Of a stretch of 8,073 nucleotides of DNA, positions 1 through 8,073 are shown piece after piece. Numbering within the stretch: position 1 is the first letter of the stretch; each line of letters begins with the position of its first letter. The DNA is from Marinagarivorans sp. UBA5870. GTDB lineage: Bacteria; Pseudomonadota; Gammaproteobacteria; Pseudomonadales; Cellvibrionaceae. The notes below the pieces were generated by a model. It worked only from the letters and a program-made list of their open reading frames with translations, did not search any database and was not told where the DNA came from. The stretch covers positions 1,476-9,548 of the forward strand of contig DJFO01000391.1 in NCBI GenBank assembly GCA_002432555.1, written 5' to 3'. The translations under genes and the position numbers were made by a program.

Positions 1-1930
1 TAAGCCCGCCGTTGTAGGTATCGCCGAGCACTTGGGAGCGCGTTACCCCCGCACTGAGTTGAACATGCCAGGCGGCACGACGGTAATCCATGGTGACAGA
101 ACCGTTGGTCAGGCTCGTGGGGTCCAGGGTATAGCCAAAACTGGTGCGAAACTGCAGGAACCCGCCCGCGCGGCTGAAGGAAAATAACCCGCGTGTGGCG
201 ATTTCCCCGTCGGCGCGGTTATCGGTCGACAGCGCCAGCTCGTTGGAAAAGCGGTTGCGGCCCAAAAATAATCCGAGTCGGTTTTCCAGGGTTAAACGGC
301 GGATGCCATCGACCGTATCAATGCGGGTGAGACCGAGGGAGTAGGGCGTTCCGAAAGTTTCAATACTGCCGAACAAGCTGAGTTTATGTTTTTGCTCTAT
401 AGCGCCGTTATTGCTTTGCGCCGAGATGAAATCCTGAAAATAAATGTTCTCGATATTGATGTCTTGCTTAAAGAGGCGGCCCGAAAGGTTGAGGCTGCCG
501 GCGCGGCCTTCTTGCAAATCTTGGGCATAATCCAGACGTGAGGAAAACAGAGGATAAGCCGAGATCCAAATCAGGCGGGCAAAATCATTTGTCGCATCCT
601 CATGCTCATCCCTATCAAGGTTGGGCAGTCTGTTGAAACCAATCCCAAATGAGTGTTTTTCTTGCAGCCCATAGAGAATCGTGGTGGCGATGGACTCCGT
701 CTGTACCGCGTCAGTTTGCGCGGTGGCCAATTCGGGCTCGCCGATCAATTTGTCGTTCTCGTTTAAAATGGTCATCGAGAACTGCCAATCCCCCGGGGCG
801 ATCATCTCCGCGCCGATTTGCACGCGCTTTCTTTCGACCTCCACCTGGCCCTGGGGGCCGTAACGGGTAATTTCAAAAAAATTCTCACCGTATTGCACTT
901 CCACGTCGCGGAATATATATCGGCCACTTTCGTCGACCACCTGAAAATCCAGTAGCAGGCCGTTGCGGTAAAGTTCAACCTCCCATCCCGGCGGGGCATC
1001 GCCCTCAAAGTCGCGGCGGTTAAAGGATTGGTCGAGGGCCGCGGATAGGTAGCGCTCCACCGTCACCCCAACGCCGGGGACCCACGGACTCACCAGGCTG
1101 TCGCCCCTCGCGTATATATCACCGAGTTCGTAACCCGTGATGCCCGGGCCAAACGAGGTCCCGGGCCTGGCGGACTGTTTCGATAGGGTGAGACGGGTAG
1201 AGGGTGGCGTAGTGCTGTCGGTTTGGATATGGGACAGGCGTGCTTGGTGTTTCAGCAAATCGTTGGTGGACTGTATCGAATATCCCCAAAGAGCATCGTC
1301 ATAACGCTGATCTTTAATGGCATTGAACCTGAGATCCATCGCCGGTGGGCCGAGCCATGCATATTCATCGTCGACCCAAGGATGAGATTTTTGGCTTCCC
1401 TGCTTAGGCGCATTCTTATTACGCATTTTCTCGCGCATAACACGCTGCTGAATCGGCAGAGTCTCTTTGCTTGATATCTGCATAATCAAGCGTGCCATGT
1501 TCAGTTGAATATCCAGCTCAAACCAACGCTCCAGCTCTTTTATATCCACATAGAGATCGAATTCATCCGCGTAAAAATGAAAGTCCGGGGAAAGACTCTG
1601 GCGGATGCCGCGGATATAGACTTCGCCACTTTTGATATTGAGAGAGAAGGTGTTCTGTTGATTGATAAACCAGCCGGATGCCTGTTGAGTTTCGCTGTCG
1701 ACCGAAATGGCAAAATCCAAGGCATCCAGAAATTCCTGGAGGGACATTACCGTGTAGTCGTTGGTGTGGTAAACGACAGTCGCGCCTGCGAGGGTAAAAG
1801 AGGCGAGTCGAAGCTCGACCACCATGCTCTCGTTCTCGTCGAGCTCCAGCTCCGTCGCAGCGTACAGGGGGGGAATCTGAAAACACGTGACAATCAGAAC
1901 AAAGAGCCAGCTTGTGAAAAGCCAGCGCAT
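1..1930 (-). CDS. Outer-membrane fimbrial usher, 3' end cut by window edge
   Basis: The reading frame is open without a stop from an ATG at 1930-1928 to base 1, giving 643 codons; the C-terminal part lies outside the window. Ushers form the outer-membrane pore through which chaperone-bound subunits are secreted and assembled. Residues 1-25 look like a signal peptide (hydrophobic LFVLIVTCF, cleavage near YAA). Residues about 50-155 hold two similar small beta modules (VMSLQEFLDALDF and LYVDIKELERWFEL) instead of an obvious PapC-type N-domain. From about 265 the sequence turns usher-like: YELGDIYARGDSLVSP, then PPGWEVELYRNG at 313-324 and a glycine-rich YGEN/YGPQGQ stretch, followed by alternating hydrophobic and polar strands typical of a beta barrel. 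The start lies 13 bp after the chaperone stop, with a weak AGG ribosome site, so it is translated from the same mRNA. The family assignment rests on these motifs and the adjacent chaperone; the exact usher clade (perhaps alternate/CS1-like) is not settled. Confidence 0.85.
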   Translation of the reverse strand, partial: MRWLFTSWLFVLIVTCFQIPPLYAATELELDENESMVVELRLASFTLAGATVVYHTNDYTVMSLQEFLDALDFAISVDSETQQASGWFINQQNTFSLNIKSGEVYIRGIRQSLSPDFHFYADEFDLYVDIKELERWFELDIQLNMARLIMQISSKETLPIQQRVMREKMRNKNAPKQGSQKSHPWVDDEYAWLGPPAMDLRFNAIKDQRYDDALWGYSIQSTNDLLKHQARLSHIQTDSTTPPSTRLTLSKQSARPGTSFGPGITGYELGDIYARGDSLVSPWVPGVGVTVERYLSAALDQSFNRRDFEGDAPPGWEVELYRNGLLLDFQVVDESGRYIFRDVEVQYGENFFEITRYGPQGQVEVERKRVQIGAEMIAPGDWQFSMTILNENDKLIGEPELATAQTDAVQTESIATTILYGLQEKHSFGIGFNRLPNLDRDEHEDATNDFARLIWISAYPLFSSRLDYAQDLQEGRAGSLNLSGRLFKQDINIENIYFQDFISAQSNNGAIEQKHKLSLFGSIETFGTPYSLGLTRIDTVDGIRRLTLENRLGLFLGRNRFSNELALSTDNRADGEIATRGLFSFSRAGGFLQFRTSFGYTLDPTSLTNGSVTMDYRRAAWHVQLSAGVTRSQVLGDTYNGGL

Positions 1931-1943
1931 TGCCTATTGCCGG

Positions 1944-2765
1944 TCAGGGTTTGAAAGTGCCGGTGACCGTGTGCTCGCCACCAAAAGTGGGATCTTCGGT
2001 AAAACGGATAAAAAGATTACCCTTACTCTTGTTGTAGGAAGCGGGCAGGTTCAAGGGCACCTCAACAATACGTTTATCGTTCGGGTAATAAACCGATAAA
2101 CCGCGGACATAACCAACCCGTTCGCCTTTTTCGCTGTTGAGAAAGACTTCAGCATCTCCGTAAGTGGAGCGCGAGCCCTCGCGGCCAAGCGAAAAGACCA
2201 GGGCATCTTCCTTGAGAGATGGAGCCTGTATGCTCAATTGAGTAGAGAGTTTACCGTGCCGGACTATGACCGGGATCGACACTTCAACAATGGGATCCAC
2301 GGAAACCGAAAGGTCGCCGCTACCGTCCAGCGAGTTACTGTCTTGTTTAGGGAGAGACTGGAATACTAAGTGAGTTCGGTATTCGCCTTCCTTCAGATCT
2401 TTGGGTATACGCACCATCACACGCACTTTTTGGAACGCACCGGCTTCGACTGTGACTCGGCGAGGGGAAAAACGTATGAGGTCGTCGGCAAAGAGTTCAT
2501 TGCCTTCCGCTTTTTCCACCGCCTGAAATCGCCCGTGATCGTCCGCGCGAATATTGCGGAGGATAATTCGATAACTGCCTGCTTCCGTTCCCTTATTGAC
2601 CAGGGTGAGTTCGGCGGAATTTTGGGAAGCCAAGACGACGCGGGTGGGAAGTATTTGTAACGCATCCACCGCGTAGGCCATTGGACTTGCCAGCAAAACT
2701 GCAACGCCGATGCAGCGCAGCAATCTGTTTATCCAATGCGAGGGGTGAAGCCGGGGGTAATTCAT
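1944..2765 (-). CDS. Periplasmic fimbrial chaperone, PapD-like
   Basis: A 273-residue protein when started at the ATG at 2765-2763. The frame continues upstream to a TTG at 2861, but the extra 32 residues are polar and would bury the signal peptide, so the inner ATG is preferred; its ribosome site is weak. Residues 1-32 form a signal peptide (positive WINRLLR, hydrophobic GVAVLLASPM, cleavage near AYA). The rest has the two-domain immunoglobulin-like pattern of fimbrial chaperones: an early LPTRVVL strand whose Arg42 is the likely counterpart of the subunit-anchoring arginine of PapD, FSPRRVTVEAG with QKVRVMVRIP at about 99-121, EGEYRTHLVF at 126-135, then IPVIVRHG at 164-171 leading to the second domain. 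Its role is to complete and cap secreted subunits and deliver them to the usher encoded next. The length is slightly above the family's usual 220-250 residues. Confidence in the family is high; the exact start is less sure. Confidence 0.88.
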   Translation of the reverse strand: MNYPRLHPSHWINRLLRCIGVAVLLASPMAYAVDALQILPTRVVLASQNSAELTLVNKGTEAGSYRIILRNIRADDHGRFQAVEKAEGNELFADDLIRFSPRRVTVEAGAFQKVRVMVRIPKDLKEGEYRTHLVFQSLPKQDSNSLDGSGDLSVSVDPIVEVSIPVIVRHGKLSTQLSIQAPSLKEDALVFSLGREGSRSTYGDAEVFLNSEKGERVGYVRGLSVYYPNDKRIVEVPLNLPASYNKSKGNLFIRFTEDPTFGGEHTVTGTFKP

Positions 2766-2798
2766 GTGGTAAGCCTGTTCGCGCGCGGCGATTTGCGG

Positions 2799-2843
2799 TG
2801 ATTCTTCGAAGCCCAGTGCTTCTTGGAAGCCCTGATTCTTCGA
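2799..2843. repeat. Direct repeat TGATTCTTCGA, two copies
   Basis: The 11-base word TGATTCTTCGA occurs at 2799-2809 and again at 2833-2843, 34 bp apart, inside the spacer between the fimbrial subunit and chaperone genes and next to the inverted repeat at 2845-2867. It could be a trace of local duplication or a protein-binding site. No function can be assigned. Confidence 0.4.
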
Positions 2844-2844
2844 C

Positions 2845-2867
2845 TGCAGATGCTGGTGCAATCTGCA
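2845..2867 (-). other. Small inverted repeat between subunit and chaperone genes
   Basis: A perfect 7-bp inverted repeat (TGCAGAT / ATCTGCA) flanks a 9-base loop in the 133-bp spacer between the subunit stop and the chaperone ATG. No run of U follows, so it is not a standard intrinsic terminator. In fimbrial operons, a structure at this place often lets the major subunit be made in excess by partial termination or mRNA stabilisation; that role is inferred here. Confidence 0.35.
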
Positions 2868-2898: not shown

Positions 2899-3390
2899 CT
2901 AGTTATAGTTCACAATGATGATATAGGTCAGGTTGTACGAACCCGCGGTGGCGCCGTTGAGATTTAATAAACCACCGATTTTGGCAGTGGTCTGTCCGCC
3001 GACCAAGACTGTCGACGCATCTGAATAAAGCTGTGGGGTAAAAGTCAGGCCCGCGGCAGAATCACCTTGTTCAACCGAGACGGAAATTGTTTGACCGTCG
3101 GTTCCACTGATAAGTATTTCACCGAGCTGTCCTTCTCCTGTACAAGTACCGCCGCCCGACGCCTCCAGGGCGCCGGTCGGTCCCATATTGCACGTCCCAT
3201 TGCCAAGGGTGAGTGTCCCAAAGTTCACAATCTTTTGCTCGATGAATTCAAAGGAATCCAGAATGGATACGCTCGCCGTGCCGGAGAAAGAGGTGGCGTG
3301 GCTGAGGCCGGTGCACAAAAGGCCTAAGCCGATCAGCCAAGCAGCCGAAGTAAATGTGACGAATTTCCCTTTGTTATGCACTTTCGACAT
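2899..3390 (-). CDS. Secreted DUF4402-type fimbrial subunit
   Basis: A 163-residue protein with a clear signal peptide (hydrophobic WLIGLGLLCTGL, cleavage after SHA at 30-32). The mature part is a beta-rich, glycine- and threonine-rich single domain. It starts ATSFSGTASVSI, has VNFGTLTLGNG at 55-65, and ends GSYNLTYIIIVNYN, the terminal pattern of DUF4402 proteins, which occur next to fimbrial chaperones and ushers. Cys67 and Cys83 are the only cysteines of the mature chain and could form a disulfide. As first gene of the operon, directly before the chaperone and usher, it is most likely the major structural subunit; that role is inferred from order. The ATG at 3390 is preceded by a weak GAGA ribosome site. 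Any tip or minor subunit would have to lie beyond the left edge. Confidence 0.8.
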   Translation of the reverse strand: MSKVHNKGKFVTFTSAAWLIGLGLLCTGLSHATSFSGTASVSILDSFEFIEQKIVNFGTLTLGNGTCNMGPTGALEASGGGTCTGEGQLGEILISGTDGQTISVSVEQGDSAAGLTFTPQLYSDASTVLVGGQTTAKIGGLLNLNGATAGSYNLTYIIIVNYN

Positions 3391-3578: not shown

Positions 3579-3591
3579 TCGCATAATGCAA
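3579..3591. promoter_or_regulatory. LuxO-type operator candidate
   Basis: TCGCATAATGCAA is a near-perfect 13-bp palindrome. It differs from the TTGCA-N3-TGCAA operator known for LuxO of vibrios at one base only (C for T at its second position). It sits 111 bp upstream of the ATG of the signalling operon that encodes a LuxO-like regulator, and about 190 bp upstream of the fimbrial operon. The link to that regulator is inferred from the similarity of its HTH to LuxO. Confidence 0.4.
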
Positions 3592-3702: not shown

Positions 3703-6012
3703 ATGTTAGCGAATGCGGTTACGCACACTGATGTTGAACGTATTTTAAATGACCGCGATAACATACTCGTGCTGCACCGGTTGGATGGCGATATTTGGGG
3801 CGCAAGCATCGCGGCTACCGATATCTTCGGCTATTCGAATGAAGAAATGCGGCAAATGTGCCTCGTCAATATCCGGCCCAAGGCCTTGCGTCTTTCGGAC
3901 CTATGCAAGGACAAAATGGGTGACGACGCATTCGTGGTTTTTCAAAAACGCAACAGCCGGCGTTTTTCCGCCAGCGTGAAGCGGAGTGTTATATCTTTTG
4001 TTCACCAGCGCGAGCCGATTGAACTGGTCTGTTTACAGCTTACCCTCAGCGATGCGCAGGATTCCTCGCGGCCGAAGGCGCCTGCGGTCGATATCAATGA
4101 GCTCGCCCTCTTTGTCGACTCGCTAAAGAGTGAGTCCCGCACCTGTCTGCGCAATTTGTCGCGCGACATTGAAGCCTTGGTGGGGGCTGGCCTGTCGGGG
4201 GAACAACAGAAAATCGCCGATCGCATGAGGAGCGACTATGAGCAGCTATCGCACATCAACGAAAATATTGTCGACAGCTTTCAGCTCGCGCAAAACGCCT
4301 TGAGCATCGATAGCGAGCCCTTCAACATTATCGAATTTCTTTCTTCCGATATACCTCGTATCGATACTTCCATCAACCGGGCGCAGGACATGATTCTTGC
4401 CCCGCGATTGCCGGAGCTGATTTACGGCGATAGAAATATGATCGGGAAGATCTTTCGCAATCTGATTGATCAAGTCGCGCAGCTGATTTCGCCGCAGCGC
4501 TCCTTACTTTCCGCGGACTACGAATCCTCTGCGGAGCGCGGTGGCCGGTTGCTGGTAAAGTATGTTTTAGAGGGCTGTAAGTCGCGCTCGGCAAGCGCTG
4601 ATGACGGCGATGTCTGCAGCGTTTTCCTCAATGCTATGCCTATTGTCTTTTCCCGGCATGTGTTGCGTTTAATGGAAGGCATCTTACGCATCGACGACCT
4701 CGGCAACCAGAAAATGGAAGTCAACCTCGAGTTAGTACTGCCGGAAGTGCACGATCTCGGCTTAGCGAGAAGGGTGGATTTTCTCAAAGGGAAGGCCGTG
4801 GTGTTGGTCGATCAGCCCTATTCGCCGCTCGTTCTGCAGCTGAAAGCTTGGGGGGCTCAGGTCGATCATTTTCATTCCTCAGCCAAAGCCCTGGAGTTCA
4901 TGGCCTCGGGAAAGCGTCGCCCCGCGCTCTTTATCGTGCGTTCGAATGCCGAAGGTAGCGCGCCGATCACGGCTTCCCATTTAGAGGCTTCCCGTCTAGG
5001 TGCATTGCCGGTGATCCTAATAGGCGCGCAGGATATTTCCGGTGAGTCAAAGTTGGCCGCGGTCACGCTGCCGCTCACCGCCAGTGTGCCGGAGATCGGC
5101 AATGTTCTGAGCCAAGCGCTGCTCGAGGGATTTCCCTATCCCTATTGCAACATGAGTGCGAAACGCCAACACGCGGAGACATCCGAAAAACCGCAGCTGC
5201 TGGTGGTCAGCCACGACGTGTCCCTGCGCGCCCGCCTGGGCGACCTGTTGCGGCAAATGAACGTGTCGATCGATGACGCGGTGAATGGCATAGACGCCGT
5301 TATGGCAAGCACGAAGCTCCGCTACGACTGCATTATCATCGATGACGATATTCCCTATATGGACGGAGTCGAAGCCGCGATTCACCTGCGGCGAGTCTCG
5401 CACGTTAATAAAGACACTCCGGTCCTGATAGTGACGGGAGACGATTCGGAGAATGGCAAACTTACGCGATCACAGGCGGGCATCTCCGCGGATATCATGA
5501 AACCGGTGAATCCAACGCAGGCTCGGCAGATGATTCAGTCGCTCCTGATGCGGGGTCGCGAATCCGGCGAGCGCCGCGCTCTCGAAGATACCGCGTCACC
5601 GATTTCCGTTTTGCGCCGCTCGGAAGAGCAGCAGGAAGTACCGGCGTATTTGACCAATTCCAACGTGATCGACGAGCAGGTTCTGGATCGGTTGGCACAG
5701 GATACCAGCCTGGATATCTGCAAAGAGATGATCGATATGTTTATTCGGGAATCGCTTGTTTCGTTGGGCGAGATTTCCAAGTGTTGTATTGCCGGGGACT
5801 GGGACGCGATATTGGAGCATGCCCATAGCCTCCGCAGTTCTTGCCGTACTTTCGGTTGCGAAGCCTTGTTCTCGACTACGCTGCGGCTGGAGGAGGAGTC
5901 CCGTAAAAACAATATGGGCGAGTGTATGCGCCTGGCGGCCAGGCTGCCGACACTGTTCCTGAAAAGCCAGCAGCACTTATACGATTACTGCAATTTTTAT
6001 CATCGACGATAG
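3703..6012 (+). CDS. Hybrid phosphorelay protein with a degenerate kinase core (PAS-pseudokinase-REC-REC-HPt)
   Basis: A 769-residue protein without membrane segments, so probably cytoplasmic. Order of parts: a PAS domain (about 15-115; IFGYSNEEM at 41-49); a dimerisation region where the usual SHEIRTPL box reads KSESRTCL, putting Ser143 in place of the phospho-histidine; a histidine-kinase ATPase remnant (about 205-347) with GDRNMIGKIFRNLIDQ, where the second N-box asparagine is Gln257, and with no DxGxG motif; a first receiver-like domain (363-475) whose phospho-Asp position is Arg413; a second receiver (497-615) with Asp547, Thr578 and Lys600 in place, though its acidic pocket reads SHD (503-505); and an HPt domain (about 655-765) with His708 in AHSLRSS. 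Autokinase activity is therefore unlikely, while Asp547 and His708 could still relay phosphate from another kinase. It ends 17 bp before the LuxO-like gene and is surely co-transcribed. RcsD is the closest known analogy in logic, not a proven homolog. Confidence 0.88.
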   Translation: MLANAVTHTDVERILNDRDNILVLHRLDGDIWGASIAATDIFGYSNEEMRQMCLVNIRPKALRLSDLCKDKMGDDAFVVFQKRNSRRFSASVKRSVISFVHQREPIELVCLQLTLSDAQDSSRPKAPAVDINELALFVDSLKSESRTCLRNLSRDIEALVGAGLSGEQQKIADRMRSDYEQLSHINENIVDSFQLAQNALSIDSEPFNIIEFLSSDIPRIDTSINRAQDMILAPRLPELIYGDRNMIGKIFRNLIDQVAQLISPQRSLLSADYESSAERGGRLLVKYVLEGCKSRSASADDGDVCSVFLNAMPIVFSRHVLRLMEGILRIDDLGNQKMEVNLELVLPEVHDLGLARRVDFLKGKAVVLVDQPYSPLVLQLKAWGAQVDHFHSSAKALEFMASGKRRPALFIVRSNAEGSAPITASHLEASRLGALPVILIGAQDISGESKLAAVTLPLTASVPEIGNVLSQALLEGFPYPYCNMSAKRQHAETSEKPQLLVVSHDVSLRARLGDLLRQMNVSIDDAVNGIDAVMASTKLRYDCIIIDDDIPYMDGVEAAIHLRRVSHVNKDTPVLIVTGDDSENGKLTRSQAGISADIMKPVNPTQARQMIQSLLMRGRESGERRALEDTASPISVLRRSEEQQEVPAYLTNSNVIDEQVLDRLAQDTSLDICKEMIDMFIRESLVSLGEISKCCIAGDWDAILEHAHSLRSSCRTFGCEALFSTTLRLEEESRKNNMGECMRLAARLPTLFLKSQQHLYDYCNFYHRR

Positions 6013-6017
6013 CCGTT

Positions 6018-6023
6018 AGGTGA
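6018..6023 (+). promoter_or_regulatory. Ribosome binding site of the LuxO-like gene
   Basis: AGGTGA lies 6 bases before the ATG at 6030, in the 17-bp gap after the upstream stop. It fixes the start and indicates that the two genes are translated independently from one mRNA. Confidence 0.6.
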
Positions 6024-6029
6024 ATATTT

Positions 6030-7454
6030 ATGACCAAACTCTATATGATCGAGGACCGCATGTCGTTGGCCCGCTGTTACCGAGAGTTTCTCAGTAATGA
6101 AGAGGCCGCGGAGATAGTAGTGCTGGATTCCGGTCAGCGGGCGGCGGAATTCATCGCTCAGCTGGAGGAGCCGTCGCTGTTTTTGCTGGATCTCCAGGTG
6201 GCGGATGTGGATGGTTTTGACCTGCTGGATGCGATTATCGCGCGCTCGCCAAAAAACGCGGTGGTGGTGATTACCAGTACCGGTTCCTTTGAGGTGTCTC
6301 GCCGCGTCATGGAGGCGGGCGCCGCGGATTATCTCGAAAAACCCTTTACCCGGGACCGGCTGTGCGTGACCATGCGCAACGCGCTCAAACAGTTGGAGCT
6401 GGCCAAGGCCGCTCAACCCTTTAGCCAAGGTTTCGAAGGGTTCATTGGATCGAGTATGGCGATGCAGAGCGTCTATCGCATAATAGAAAGCGCCGCCGCG
6501 AGCAGCCGGGCCTCGGTGTTTATTACCGGCGAAAGCGGCACGGGTAAAGAGGTGTGCTCCCAAGCCGTGCATGACTTGAGCGAGCGGTCGGATTACGAAT
6601 GCGTCATTCTCAATTGTGCCGCAATTCCGCGGGATCTCATGGAGAGTGAAATTTTTGGTCACGTAAAAGGCGCTTTTACCGGCGCCCTGACCAACCGGGA
6701 CGGCGCTGCCCGCCGCGCCCACAAGGGGACACTGTTTCTCGACGAAATTGGTGAAATGGACATGGACCTGCAGAGTAAGCTGCTCCGGTTTATTCAGACG
6801 GGTCAGTTCCAGCGGGTGGGCAGCAGTGAAACCGAGGTGGTTGACGTGCGCTTTGTCTGCGCGACCAATCGCGATCCGCTGCGCGAGGTGCGGGAGGGGC
6901 GATTCCGCGAGGACCTTTATTACCGTCTCAACGTAATTCCCATAGAGCTGCCGCCTCTGCGGCAGCGGGGCGGCGATATTCTGCAAATTGCTGAACACTA
7001 CCTAAGGGTTTTCTCCGAAGAAGAGGGTAAAGGTTTTCGGCAGCTGTCACAGGCGGTCAGCGACATTTTTCTCGGTTACAGCTGGCCCGGCAATGTACGG
7101 CAGCTGCTGAATGTGCTGAGAAACATTGTGGTACTGCACAACGGCACGACGGTTGAAATGGATATGCTGCCGGCACCATTCAACGACTCCTCGAATGCCG
7201 ATCTCCGTATCAAACAAGCCGTCCAGCGGCAACCTGAAAACACCGCGCGCAAAGCGGCGGAGAGTGTGGAAGACATAAAACCACTCTGGCTGGTGGAGAT
7301 GGAGGCGATCGATAGGGCTATTAGCCTGTGTAACGGCAACGTTTCTATGGCCGCTAAACTGTTGGATATCAGCCCCTCGACCATCTACCGAAAAAAACCC
7401 GCGTGGAAAAAGAGTCTCGCGGATTATGGCGTGCAGTTGAATTATCTCAATTGA
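6030..7454 (+). CDS. LuxO-like sigma-54-dependent response regulator
   Basis: A 474-residue protein with three intact parts. The receiver (1-120) has Glu8-Asp9, phospho-acceptor Asp54 in FLLDLQ, Thr82 and Lys104-Pro105. The AAA+ domain (about 137-365) has Walker A GESGTGKE at 167-174, the sigma-54 contact loop GAFTGA at 214-219, Walker B TLFLDEIG at 234-241 and the arginine region [12 protein letters not shown] at 290-301. The C-terminal Fis-type HTH (about 420-458) reads [20 protein letters not shown], with [10 protein letters not shown] before it; this tail and the start ([17 protein letters not shown]) closely recall LuxO of vibrios. LuxO, when phosphorylated, drives sigma-54 transcription of Qrr small RNAs. 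The targets here are not known. The phosphate donor is probably His708 of the upstream HPt. Calling it an ortholog of luxO would need a phylogeny, as NtrC-family regulators are many, so no gene symbol is given. Confidence 0.92.
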
Positions 7455-7600
7455 TAGTATGGGGATTTCGGTGGCTGCAGCGGCGCTGTGCCTGGGTCCC
7501 GGCCTGAGTAGGGACAAGGTGCTAAGTTCGACTTATCTGAAACCTAAGTTCCGGCCGGGAGTCTATGGCAGCTGTTGCTTCGGCCATGCAGGACAGATTT
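7455..7600. other. Spacer between the LuxO-like gene and the hydrolase, with direct repeat
   Basis: About 145 bp without a credible gene. It carries the 8-base word CTAAGTTC twice (7522-7529 and 7544-7551), 22 bp apart or two helical turns, which could be an operator or promoter part for the hydrolase gene. No clear terminator with a T-run was seen after the regulator, so read-through into the hydrolase is possible. Confidence 0.35.
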
Positions 7601-8073
7601 ATGGTAGGTTTCACGCAATTTCTCCGGCAATTTATCCAATTTATCCAATTTATCAAGAGCTGGTTGCTATTTGCCGGCCTGCTCCTATTGTGGCTGCCCA
7701 GTCCATCTGCGTTGGCTAAAAAAGCTGACATTGAATTTTATGTCGAAAAGGTCGGCGATGGCGTATTCAGTCTGCGGCCGGAAAAGACCTGGCGTATCAA
7801 CAGCACCAATGTGCTTTATGTGGGGGAGAAAGCCCTGGTTCTCGTGGATGGACAGGCAGATCCTCATTCCGCGGAACAAATGCTGGAGGCAATTCACCAG
7901 CGTGTTTCTAAGCTGCCCATCGAATTTGTCATTCTCACTCATCCCCATTTGGATCATGTGGGTGGGCTCAGCGCCATCAAGCGGCGGTATCCGTCTGCGA
8001 AAATTATTGCGCACAATTCGGTAGCCGAATTTTTTCGGACCCACTCCGAAAAAGAGCGGCAATGGGAGGTCAA
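7601..8073 (+). CDS. Secreted metallo-beta-lactamase-fold hydrolase, 3' end cut by window edge
   Basis: The frame runs to the window end (157 complete codons from this start). The ATG at 7601 is chosen because AGGA stands 7 bases before it; the in-frame ATGs at 7565 (GGGAG only 3 bases away) and 7586 (no site) are alternatives. Residues 1-39 look like a signal peptide with an unusually long first part that holds a repeated QFI (see 7628-7654), then SWLLFAGLLLLWL and a cut after SALA. The mature chain begins like MBL-fold proteins: VGDGVFSLRP, then NSTNVLYVGEKALVLVDG, and the metal-binding THPHLDHVGG motif with His114, His116, Asp118 and His119. The remaining metal ligands lie beyond the edge. 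Members act on many substrates (beta-lactams, thioesters, lactones and others), so the substrate cannot be told. A role in quorum-signal breakdown would only be a guess from the neighbouring regulator. Confidence 0.85.
   Translation, partial: MVGFTQFLRQFIQFIQFIKSWLLFAGLLLLWLPSPSALAKKADIEFYVEKVGDGVFSLRPEKTWRINSTNVLYVGEKALVLVDGQADPHSAEQMLEAIHQRVSKLPIEFVILTHPHLDHVGGLSAIKRRYPSAKIIAHNSVAEFFRTHSEKERQWEV
7628..7654 (+). repeat. 9-bp tandem repeat in the signal-peptide coding region
   Basis: CAATTTATC is repeated three times head to tail, preceded by a diverged copy CAATTTCTC at 7616-7624. As the unit is 9 bp, copy-number change keeps the frame and adds or removes Gln-Phe-Ile triplets in the N-terminal part of the hydrolase signal peptide. 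Confidence 0.8.

What the first reader, a model, noticed from the sequence alone, without database searches (positions are those of the whole stretch)
3703..7454. RcsD-like node fused to a LuxU-type HPt and paired with a LuxO-like activator
In vibrios, membrane kinases pass phosphate through the free HPt protein LuxU to LuxO. Here the HPt (His708) is the tail of a soluble pseudokinase with a PAS domain, immediately upstream of the LuxO-like gene. This suggests a relay in which another kinase supplies phosphate to Asp547 or His708 and the PAS domain sets the flow, a layout like RcsC-RcsD-RcsB but built on sigma-54 output. I do not know this exact arrangement from described systems.
Basis: inference. 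Interest (0 to 1): 0.75.

Follow-up and report, generated by a model that had tools for sequence, protein, structure and literature searches.

The report
Dead-kinase relay node beside LuxO-like activator
A bacterial signalling protein that has lost its own kinase keeps one phosphate-carrying domain and sits next to a LuxO-like gene switch, which in relatives appears to control a hair-like surface pilus; it is an unusual but recognisable variant of known relay systems.

Summary
The gene pair is real. ORF 3703-6012 encodes PAS-like, dead DHp/CA, REC1-like, REC and HPt domains; ORF 6030-7454 a LuxO-type sigma-54 activator. The kinase His position is Ser143 and the ATP-site Asn is Gln257. His708 and Asp54 are intact; HPt and PAS regions are best conserved. 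Eleven related proteins, 0 of 11 with the kinase His, form one clade. In 3 pairs whose HPt lost its His the LuxO receiver is damaged; a fourth (L001) kept the receiver but lost the AAA+ domain. This supports His708-to-Asp54 transfer where both remain, but some relatives must work without phosphate. The LuxO branch is tied to DUF4402 pilus genes, with sigma-54 promoters in 5 of 5 relatives; the window itself shows no clear promoter. The layout has a described parallel, SypF-SypG of Vibrio fischeri, where other kinases are thought to feed the SypF HPt. Verdict: new variant of a known kind; interpretation partly supported. The donor kinase, and any separate LuxU, could not be tested.

The parts
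3703..6012 (+). LuxO-linked pseudokinase, 769 aa (PAS-like, DHp-like, CA-like, REC1-like, REC, HPt)
3703..4047 (+). PAS-like sensor domain, residues 1-115; 88, 89 and 81% identical to P0004, P0005 and P0006
   Evidence: sub-threshold Pfam PAS; strand-helix pattern of the model; relatives L115, L137 and L141 pass the PAS_9 cut-off, L119 is below it; conservation
4129..4131 (+). Ser143, at the place of the kinase phosphoacceptor His
   Evidence: two alignments agree
4315..4740 (+). degenerate CA (GHKL-like) domain, residues 205-346; N-box Asn is Gln257, G1 and G2 boxes not recognisable
4774..5142 (+). REC1-like domain, residues about 358-480 (WGAQ..HF-type motif shared by the family)
   Evidence: top Foldseek match of the whole model is full-length ShkA
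5188..5556 (+). REC domain, residues 496-618; Asp547, Thr578 and Lys600 kept, acidic pair replaced by Ser503-His504
5674..5973 (+). HPt domain, residues 658-757
   Evidence: 89, 90 and 77% identical to P0004-P0006 and 62% to P0007 (residues 661-757)
5824..5826 (+). His708, HPt phosphate-carrying residue
6030..7454 (+). LuxO-type sigma-54 activator, 474 aa; receiver residues (Glu8-Asp9, Asp54, Thr82, Lys104), GAFTGA and Fis HTH present
6189..6191 (+). Asp54, presumed phosphoacceptor of the activator
3579..3591 (+). candidate LuxO-type binding site TCGCATAATGCAA (9 of 10 to TTGCANNNTGCAA), the only one at that level in the window; the same 13-mer lies upstream of the Teredinibacter pseudokinase
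   Evidence: not significant by number alone (53 of 200 shuffles have one or more)
2899..3390 (-). DUF4402 pilin-like protein, divergent from the pair
1944..2861 (-). PapD-like periplasmic chaperone (Pfam hit below cut-off)
2..1930 (-). usher-like protein, cut by the window edge; no Pfam hit of its own

Best explanation
ORF 3703-6012 descends from a soluble PAS-DHp-CA-REC1-REC-HPt hybrid kinase that served a LuxO-like activator. It has lost autophosphorylation and probably its own receiver chemistry, and now works as a signal-gated HPt node. Another hybrid kinase (not identified) phosphorylates His708 in trans, and His708 passes phosphate to Asp54 of the activator encoded next to it. The PAS-like domain and dead core set the access, direction or rate of this exchange. 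The phosphorylated activator then works with sigma-54 on genes that include, in this clade, a DUF4402 chaperone-usher pilus, and perhaps its own operon. Shown by sequence: dead kinase, altered REC, intact HPt and Asp54, gene linkage, promoters in relatives. Inferred: donor in trans, gating by PAS, the target in the window's own genome.
For: Kinase His absent in 11 of 11 family members, present in 29 of 29 other hybrid kinases compared; the 11 form one clade (SH-aLRT 98). HPt and PAS regions are the most conserved, DHp, CA and REC1-like the least of the folded parts. Same-strand HPt-LuxO neighbours within 150 bp: 22 of 22 with the HPt His have a complete LuxO receiver set; the 3 pairs without it (L119 Ser, L137 Asn, L141 Asn) have a damaged one. 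Precedent: RscS and HahK to SypF HPt to SypG. Pilus link: the five best chaperone hits among 390 genomes all have a LuxO-like gene beside pilus genes (in G626 the operon is split over two contigs), and all five have a strong sigma-54-type site before a DUF4402 gene. LuxO-type sites are clearly in excess in one of them, G474.
Against: No donor kinase or genome is known for the window. Relatives keep the pairing after losing phosphate chemistry: L119 lacks the HPt His, the REC Asp and the LuxO Asp. In the pilus-linked loci, LuxO Asp54 is Gly, Tyr, Ser and Ser in four of five relatives, and the fifth (G507) keeps Asp but lacks the Thr. Teredinibacter L001 keeps the LuxO-type receiver while its HPt His is Gln. 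The window's upstream region has no convincing sigma-54 promoter, and its single UAS-like site is not significant by number. LuxO-type sites are within chance numbers in G507 and G492 and absent in G593.
Confidence: 0.52

Rival explanations
1. Phosphate-independent control by direct contact, as NifL does with NifA: the pseudokinase binds the activator and the PAS domain switches the complex; His708 is a remnant or minor.
For: Relative L119 has lost the phosphate-carrying residues in both partners and is still paired, 3 bp apart, beside the same kind of pilus operon with sigma-54-type sites. Three further pilus-linked LuxO proteins lack Asp54. The NifL-NifA complex is among the Foldseek matches of the model (rank 43, rmsd 37, so weak).
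Against: In the window clade the HPt is among the best conserved domains and His708 is kept in 6 of 6 rows of A1; Asp54, its acidic pair, Thr and Lys are all kept. Loss of the HPt His goes with damage to the LuxO receiver in 3 pairs, which suggests they work together where kept.
Confidence: 0.27
2. Phosphate drain: the HPt takes phosphate off the activator, which another donor charges, and the pseudokinase is a negative regulator.
For: HPt flow can be reversed in the known systems (passages of PMC11841056: LuxU removes phosphate from LuxO at high cell density; BinK is predicted to act on the SypF HPt). The dead kinase cannot charge the HPt itself.
Against: The window clade's own REC, the usual sink, has lost the metal-binding pair, so a drain also needs a partner in trans. 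No direct data.
Confidence: 0.13
3. The kinase core is unusual but active, or the protein is decaying without function.
For: Sequence alone cannot exclude weak nucleotide binding; two relatives (L115, L137) keep the ATP-site Asn and a G1-like box.
Against: In the window: no His, no N-box Asn, no recognisable G1 or G2 motif. Decay without function does not fit full-length orthologues at 61-75% identity with domain-specific conservation.
Confidence: 0.08

Closest known systems
SypF-SypG of Vibrio fischeri (with RscS, HahK, BinK)
   Same: Hybrid protein with C-terminal HPt serving a LuxO-like sigma-54 activator; HPt thought to be fed in trans by other hybrid kinases, and sufficient on its own to complement (passages)
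   Different: SypF is described as a histidine kinase and the output is a polysaccharide locus; here the kinase His and ATP site are gone, the REC metal site is altered and the linked genes look like a DUF4402 pilus
RcsD of the Rcs phosphorelay
   Same: Dead kinase core with an HPt that passes on phosphate it did not generate (recalled; RcsD named as phosphotransfer protein in a passage of PMC12189002)
   Different: RcsD is membrane-bound with a NarL-type partner RcsB and no REC (recalled); here the protein looks soluble, keeps a REC and has a sigma-54 partner
LuxU-LuxO of vibrios
   Same: HPt to LuxO transfer; activator scores 595 bits to the LuxO model; LuxO-type binding sites in excess at one related locus
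   Different: LuxU is a free small protein; no Qrr-like RNA found in the window by Rfam
NifL-NifA
   Same: PAS-bearing kinase-like protein controlling a sigma-54 activator (recalled)
   Different: No HPt or REC relay in NifL-NifA (recalled); His708 and Asp54 kept in the window
ShkA and BarA-type hybrid kinases
   Same: DHp-CA-REC1-REC layout (recalled for ShkA); ShkA is the top Foldseek match (E 2.3e-16, but TM 0.33 by query length and rmsd 13.1)
   Different: Those kinases are active (recalled); this core lacks the catalytic residues

Membership tests
LuxO (NCBIfam NF041946, quorum-sensing regulator) | Score above curated cut-off (800 bits) | tested here: not met
   595.2 bits
LuxO (NCBIfam NF041946, quorum-sensing regulator) | REC with acceptor set, sigma-54 AAA+ with GAFTGA, Fis HTH | tested here: met
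LuxO (NCBIfam NF041946, quorum-sensing regulator) | Control of Qrr small RNAs | tested here: inconclusive
   No Qrr in the window at E <= 1; rest of genome not held
RcsD | Kinase core without phosphoacceptor His, HPt with His (feature recalled) | tested here: met
RcsD | Membrane-anchored with periplasmic domain (feature recalled) | tested here: not met
   no transmembrane-like stretch
RcsD | NarL-type partner RcsB (feature recalled) | tested here: not met
   adjacent partner is a sigma-54 activator
LuxU | Stand-alone HPt protein | tested here: not met
   HPt is the C-terminus of a 769-aa protein
SypF | Histidine kinase with His and ATP site | tested here: not met
   Ser143, Gln257, no recognisable G boxes
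SypF | HPt serving a LuxO-like activator and charged in trans | tested here: inconclusive
   Adjacency and His708 present; trans charging needs experiment
Pseudo-receiver (for the REC of ORF 3703-6012) | Receiver lacking key catalytic residues | tested here: met
   acidic pair is Ser503-His504; Asp, Thr, Lys kept; definition from abstract start and passages of PMC12632262
NifL-NifA type contact control | Control of the activator by binding, without phosphate | not testable with these tools
   needs binding and mutant assays
Chaperone-usher pilus operon (neighbour) | Pilin-like, PapD-like chaperone and usher genes together | tested here: inconclusive
   DUF4402 passes its Pfam cut-off by 0.3 bits; PapD_N below cut-off; usher-like protein has no Pfam hit; gene order conserved in relatives

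The most novel reading that the evidence does not exclude
This clade is a natural series in which a phosphate relay was dismantled around a LuxO-like activator: the kinase His in all 11 members, and in some also the ATP site, the REC metal site, the HPt His and the LuxO Asp (the order of loss is inferred). The window is at a middle stage, a PAS-gated HPt node fed in trans. Its relatives have gone on to phosphate-free, NifL-like control of sigma-54-dependent pili, and one even dropped the sigma-54 ATPase domain of its activator.
Probability: 0.4. Interest if true: 0.75.

Novelty: new variant of a known kind. Interest (0 to 1): 0.57.

Why it matters
How pseudo-receivers are switched is described as unknown (abstract start of PMC12632262), and pseudo-histidine kinases are a young topic there (passages). 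Here one clade holds partly intact, half-dead and fully dead relays attached to the same activator, in some cases with the same kind of pilus promoter. That would make it testable how a phosphate switch turns into a contact switch, and it ties LuxO-like regulators outside vibrios to a DUF4402 pilus.

Tried and rejected
Qrr-like RNA in the window: Rfam up to E = 1 gave one chance-level snoRNA match. Sigma-54 promoter in the window: 6 pattern matches against 8.6 expected; none convincing between the divergent genes. A second draw of 340 genomes listed no match outside genomes already seen. The third protein search with A2 listed no full-length family member beyond those (120 of 201 hits listed; only 7996 candidates scored). 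Family searches of G474 (2 genomes), G691 (15), G486 (2) and G507 (22) found no further pseudokinase locus and no further LuxO of the clade. My first reading that the His position is Arg154 was wrong; two alignments place it at residue 143 (one search corrects the column used and my first notes). VIA-align rows cover mainly the REC, so they say nothing of the other domains. Searches of the held papers: DUF4402 with chaperone and usher, 0 papers; chaperone-usher, sigma54, enhancer binding protein, pilin, LuxO (4 of 5 terms), two papers seen only as listing and abstract start, not on this. Nothing wider is claimed about print.

Limits: both trees are quick searches with SH-aLRT only and have long branches. 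The 29 comparison kinases are my choice from fetched loci and search hits. One search scored at most 11 candidates per genome. Pairs compared are related and not independent. The sigma-54 score uses my own weights on a recalled consensus. P0037-P0039 are labelled as partners of P0004-P0006 by inference; only P0006 and P0039 share a contig length (13040). The LuxO gene of L115 runs off its contig. The split LuxO of L141 and the AAA-less LuxO of L001 could be assembly errors. Genomes drawn are samples: 369 of the class, 390 and 340 of the order. No DNA of P0004-P0008 was held, so no dN/dS.
Full report
The observation. Two ORFs lie at the coordinates given, 3703-6012 (769 aa) and 6030-7454 (474 aa), on one strand and 17 bp apart. 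Pfam recognises REC and HPt in the first and REC, sigma-54 AAA+ and Fis HTH in the second. The second is closest to LuxO among NCBIfam models (595 bits; its cut-off of 800 is not reached) and among solved structures (5ep0, E 6e-128). The AlphaFold2 model (A4, 17 rows, mean pLDDT 73.8) shows PAS-like, DHp, GHKL-like, REC-like, REC and HPt segments in that order. Foldseek ranks full-length ShkA first, with RetS, GacS and DivL kinase regions further down; overall superpositions are poor, so this supports domain content only.

The kinase is dead. The residue before Glu144 occupies the phosphoacceptor His position in two alignments. It is Ser in the window, Asp in P0004-P0006, Gln in P0007 and P0008, Asn in L001, L119 and L137, Lys in L115 and Arg in L141: 0 of 11 His, against 29 of 29 His in the other hybrid kinases that I aligned. 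The N-box Asn is Gln257 in the window and Asn in only 2 of 11 (L115, L137). A published survey gives 0.9% of HisKA domains without the His (722 of 76,471; passage of PMC12632262).

The receiver is altered. Asp547, Thr578 and Lys600 are kept, but the acidic pair is Ser503-His504 in the window and SH, SH, SQ in its three closest relatives, while P0007 and P0008 have DD. By the definition in PMC12632262 this is a pseudo-receiver. A relay through Asp547 is therefore unlikely though not excluded.

What is conserved. Against P0004, P0005 and P0006, identity is 89, 90 and 77% in the HPt and 88, 89 and 81% in the PAS-like region, but 59, 72 and 49% in the DHp and 69, 72 and 50% in the CA region. Against P0007 the HPt is 62%, the PAS-like region 46%, and DHp, CA and REC 20, 27 and 36%. 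Selection appears to hold the sensor and the HPt.

Family and distribution. The first protein search gave five full-length orthologues besides the query's own entry. A scan of GTDB genome contigs gave one locus, in Teredinibacter sp. ISS155 (L001). Among 97 genomes (G001 and its relatives, at most 11 candidates scored in each) only G001 had a full-length member (1033 bits; next best 109 bits, over the C-terminal domains). P0002 relatives at E <= 1e-100 occur in 16 of 369 class genomes and 43 of 390 order genomes. I fetched 56 neighbourhoods; four more pseudokinases came from them, L115, L119, L137 and L141. A search of 11 chosen genomes with A2 confirmed family members in G001, G486, G691, G725 and G474 (854-1091 bits); the best hits elsewhere, 277 bits or less, match ordinary kinases, so G507, whose LuxO stands alone, has none. 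All 11 proteins form one clade against 29 others (SH-aLRT 98). In the LuxO tree of 83 rows, all pseudokinase-paired and pilus-linked activators fall in one clade of 35 rows (98). Eleven of these 35 have a known neighbourhood (P0060 equals the L105 protein and is not counted again); five have a pseudokinase beside them and none has a His-bearing kinase directly beside it.

Joint decay. LuxO-like genes in the order often lie next to an HPt, in a hybrid kinase or a small protein. Of 22 same-strand neighbours within 150 bp (overlaps counted) whose HPt keeps its His, 22 have a complete LuxO receiver set; the 13 loci whose nearest HPt is farther off or on the other strand look the same. In the three pairs whose HPt His is lost, the receiver is damaged: L119 (Ser; LuxO ES pair and Asp to Gly), L137 (Asn; EG pair), and L141 (Asn; the receiver is a separate ORF between the two, with Asp to Glu). 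A fourth, L001, has HPt Gln and a 200-aa partner of receiver and HTH without the AAA+ domain; its receiver residues look intact, which does not fit a simple joint loss of His and Asp. Receivers also decay where no HPt is adjacent (L129, L130; L164-L166). Pairs are related, so this is a pattern and not a test. It favours HPt to LuxO transfer where both residues remain, as in the window.

Output. The pair is divergent from DUF4402, chaperone-like and usher-like genes. The chaperone has hits at E <= 1e-25 in 8 of 390 order genomes. The five best (G507, G474, G593, G626, G492) all have a LuxO-like gene beside such genes; in G626 the operon is split over two contigs. The three weaker ones (G066, G743, G725) have no LuxO of this kind in the 18 kb fetched. 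All five have a TGGCAC-type sigma-54 site before a DUF4402 gene (scores 19.7-20.4 of 21.9; background 1.4e-5 to 4.2e-5 per position, 11 positions of 214,124 at 19 or more). G066 has no such site (15.7); G725 and G743 were not scored. LuxO-type sites (TTGCAWWWTGCAA in vibrios, passage of PMC10162802) are perfect four times in the G474 pilin upstream regions (0 of 200 shuffles reach its total of seven). In G507 two one-mismatch sites lie between LuxO and pilin, but the count of three in the stretch is within chance (21 of 200); G492 likewise (two; 73 of 200); G593 has none, and none at 9 of 10 or better was seen in the G626 stretches scanned. The window has one such site, 3579-3591, in the divergent intergenic region. 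Its number is not significant (53 of 200 shuffles), but the same 13-mer lies, with two more one-mismatch sites, just upstream of the Teredinibacter pseudokinase (four in that locus; 16 of 100 shuffles reach four). No sigma-54 promoter is convincing in the window. The window operon begins with a DUF4402 gene that scores best to the second one of G507; the first one is not in the window.

How it most likely works. I infer a PAS-gated HPt node charged in trans, passing phosphate from His708 to Asp54. The nearest described system is SypF-SypG, in which RscS and HahK are thought to donate to the SypF HPt, and the HPt alone complements a sypF deletion (passages of PMC12369376, PMC10162802, PMC11841056). 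The same work shows a second HPt, LuxU, serving SypG when SypF is absent, so a separate LuxU in the window's genome would matter; it could not be looked for. The main rival is contact control as in NifL-NifA, which relatives such as L119 must use if they are functional. The window keeps the residues that L119 lost, so I favour the relay.

Novelty. Parts and layout have precedents (SypF-SypG, RcsD, pseudo-receivers). The dead kinase with a LuxO partner, the graded decay inside one clade and the pilus link were not found in the searches made (listings). I class it as a new variant of a known kind.

Noticed in passing
L001:12342-12944: Teredinibacter sp. ISS155 partner protein is a LuxO-like receiver plus Fis HTH (200 aa) without the sigma-54 AAA+ domain; its adjacent HPt has Gln for His.
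   Followed up: partly
L119:6507-8852 and 5067-6503 (G474): Pair in which kinase His, REC Asp, HPt His and LuxO Asp are all lost, beside a pilus operon with sigma-54-type sites and perfect LuxO-type sites.
   Followed up: partly
L137 and L113 (G691); L141 and L106 (G725): Two genomes hold both a complete hybrid kinase-LuxO pair and a pseudokinase-LuxO pair.
   Followed up: partly
L129:5217-6656, L130:5532-6971: LuxO-like activators without an adjacent kinase, with Asp54 replaced by Glu.
   Followed up: no
L132:5025-5759, L134, L135, L143: A 244-255 aa protein matching the REC-HPt part of hybrid kinases directly upstream of LuxO, with a hybrid kinase on the other strand nearby, in several genomes.
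   Followed up: no
L144:5877-7241: LuxO-like protein whose GAFTGA motif is missing in the alignment.
   Followed up: no
window 7565-8073: Start of a metallo-beta-lactamase-fold hydrolase downstream of the pair, cut by the window edge.
   Followed up: no
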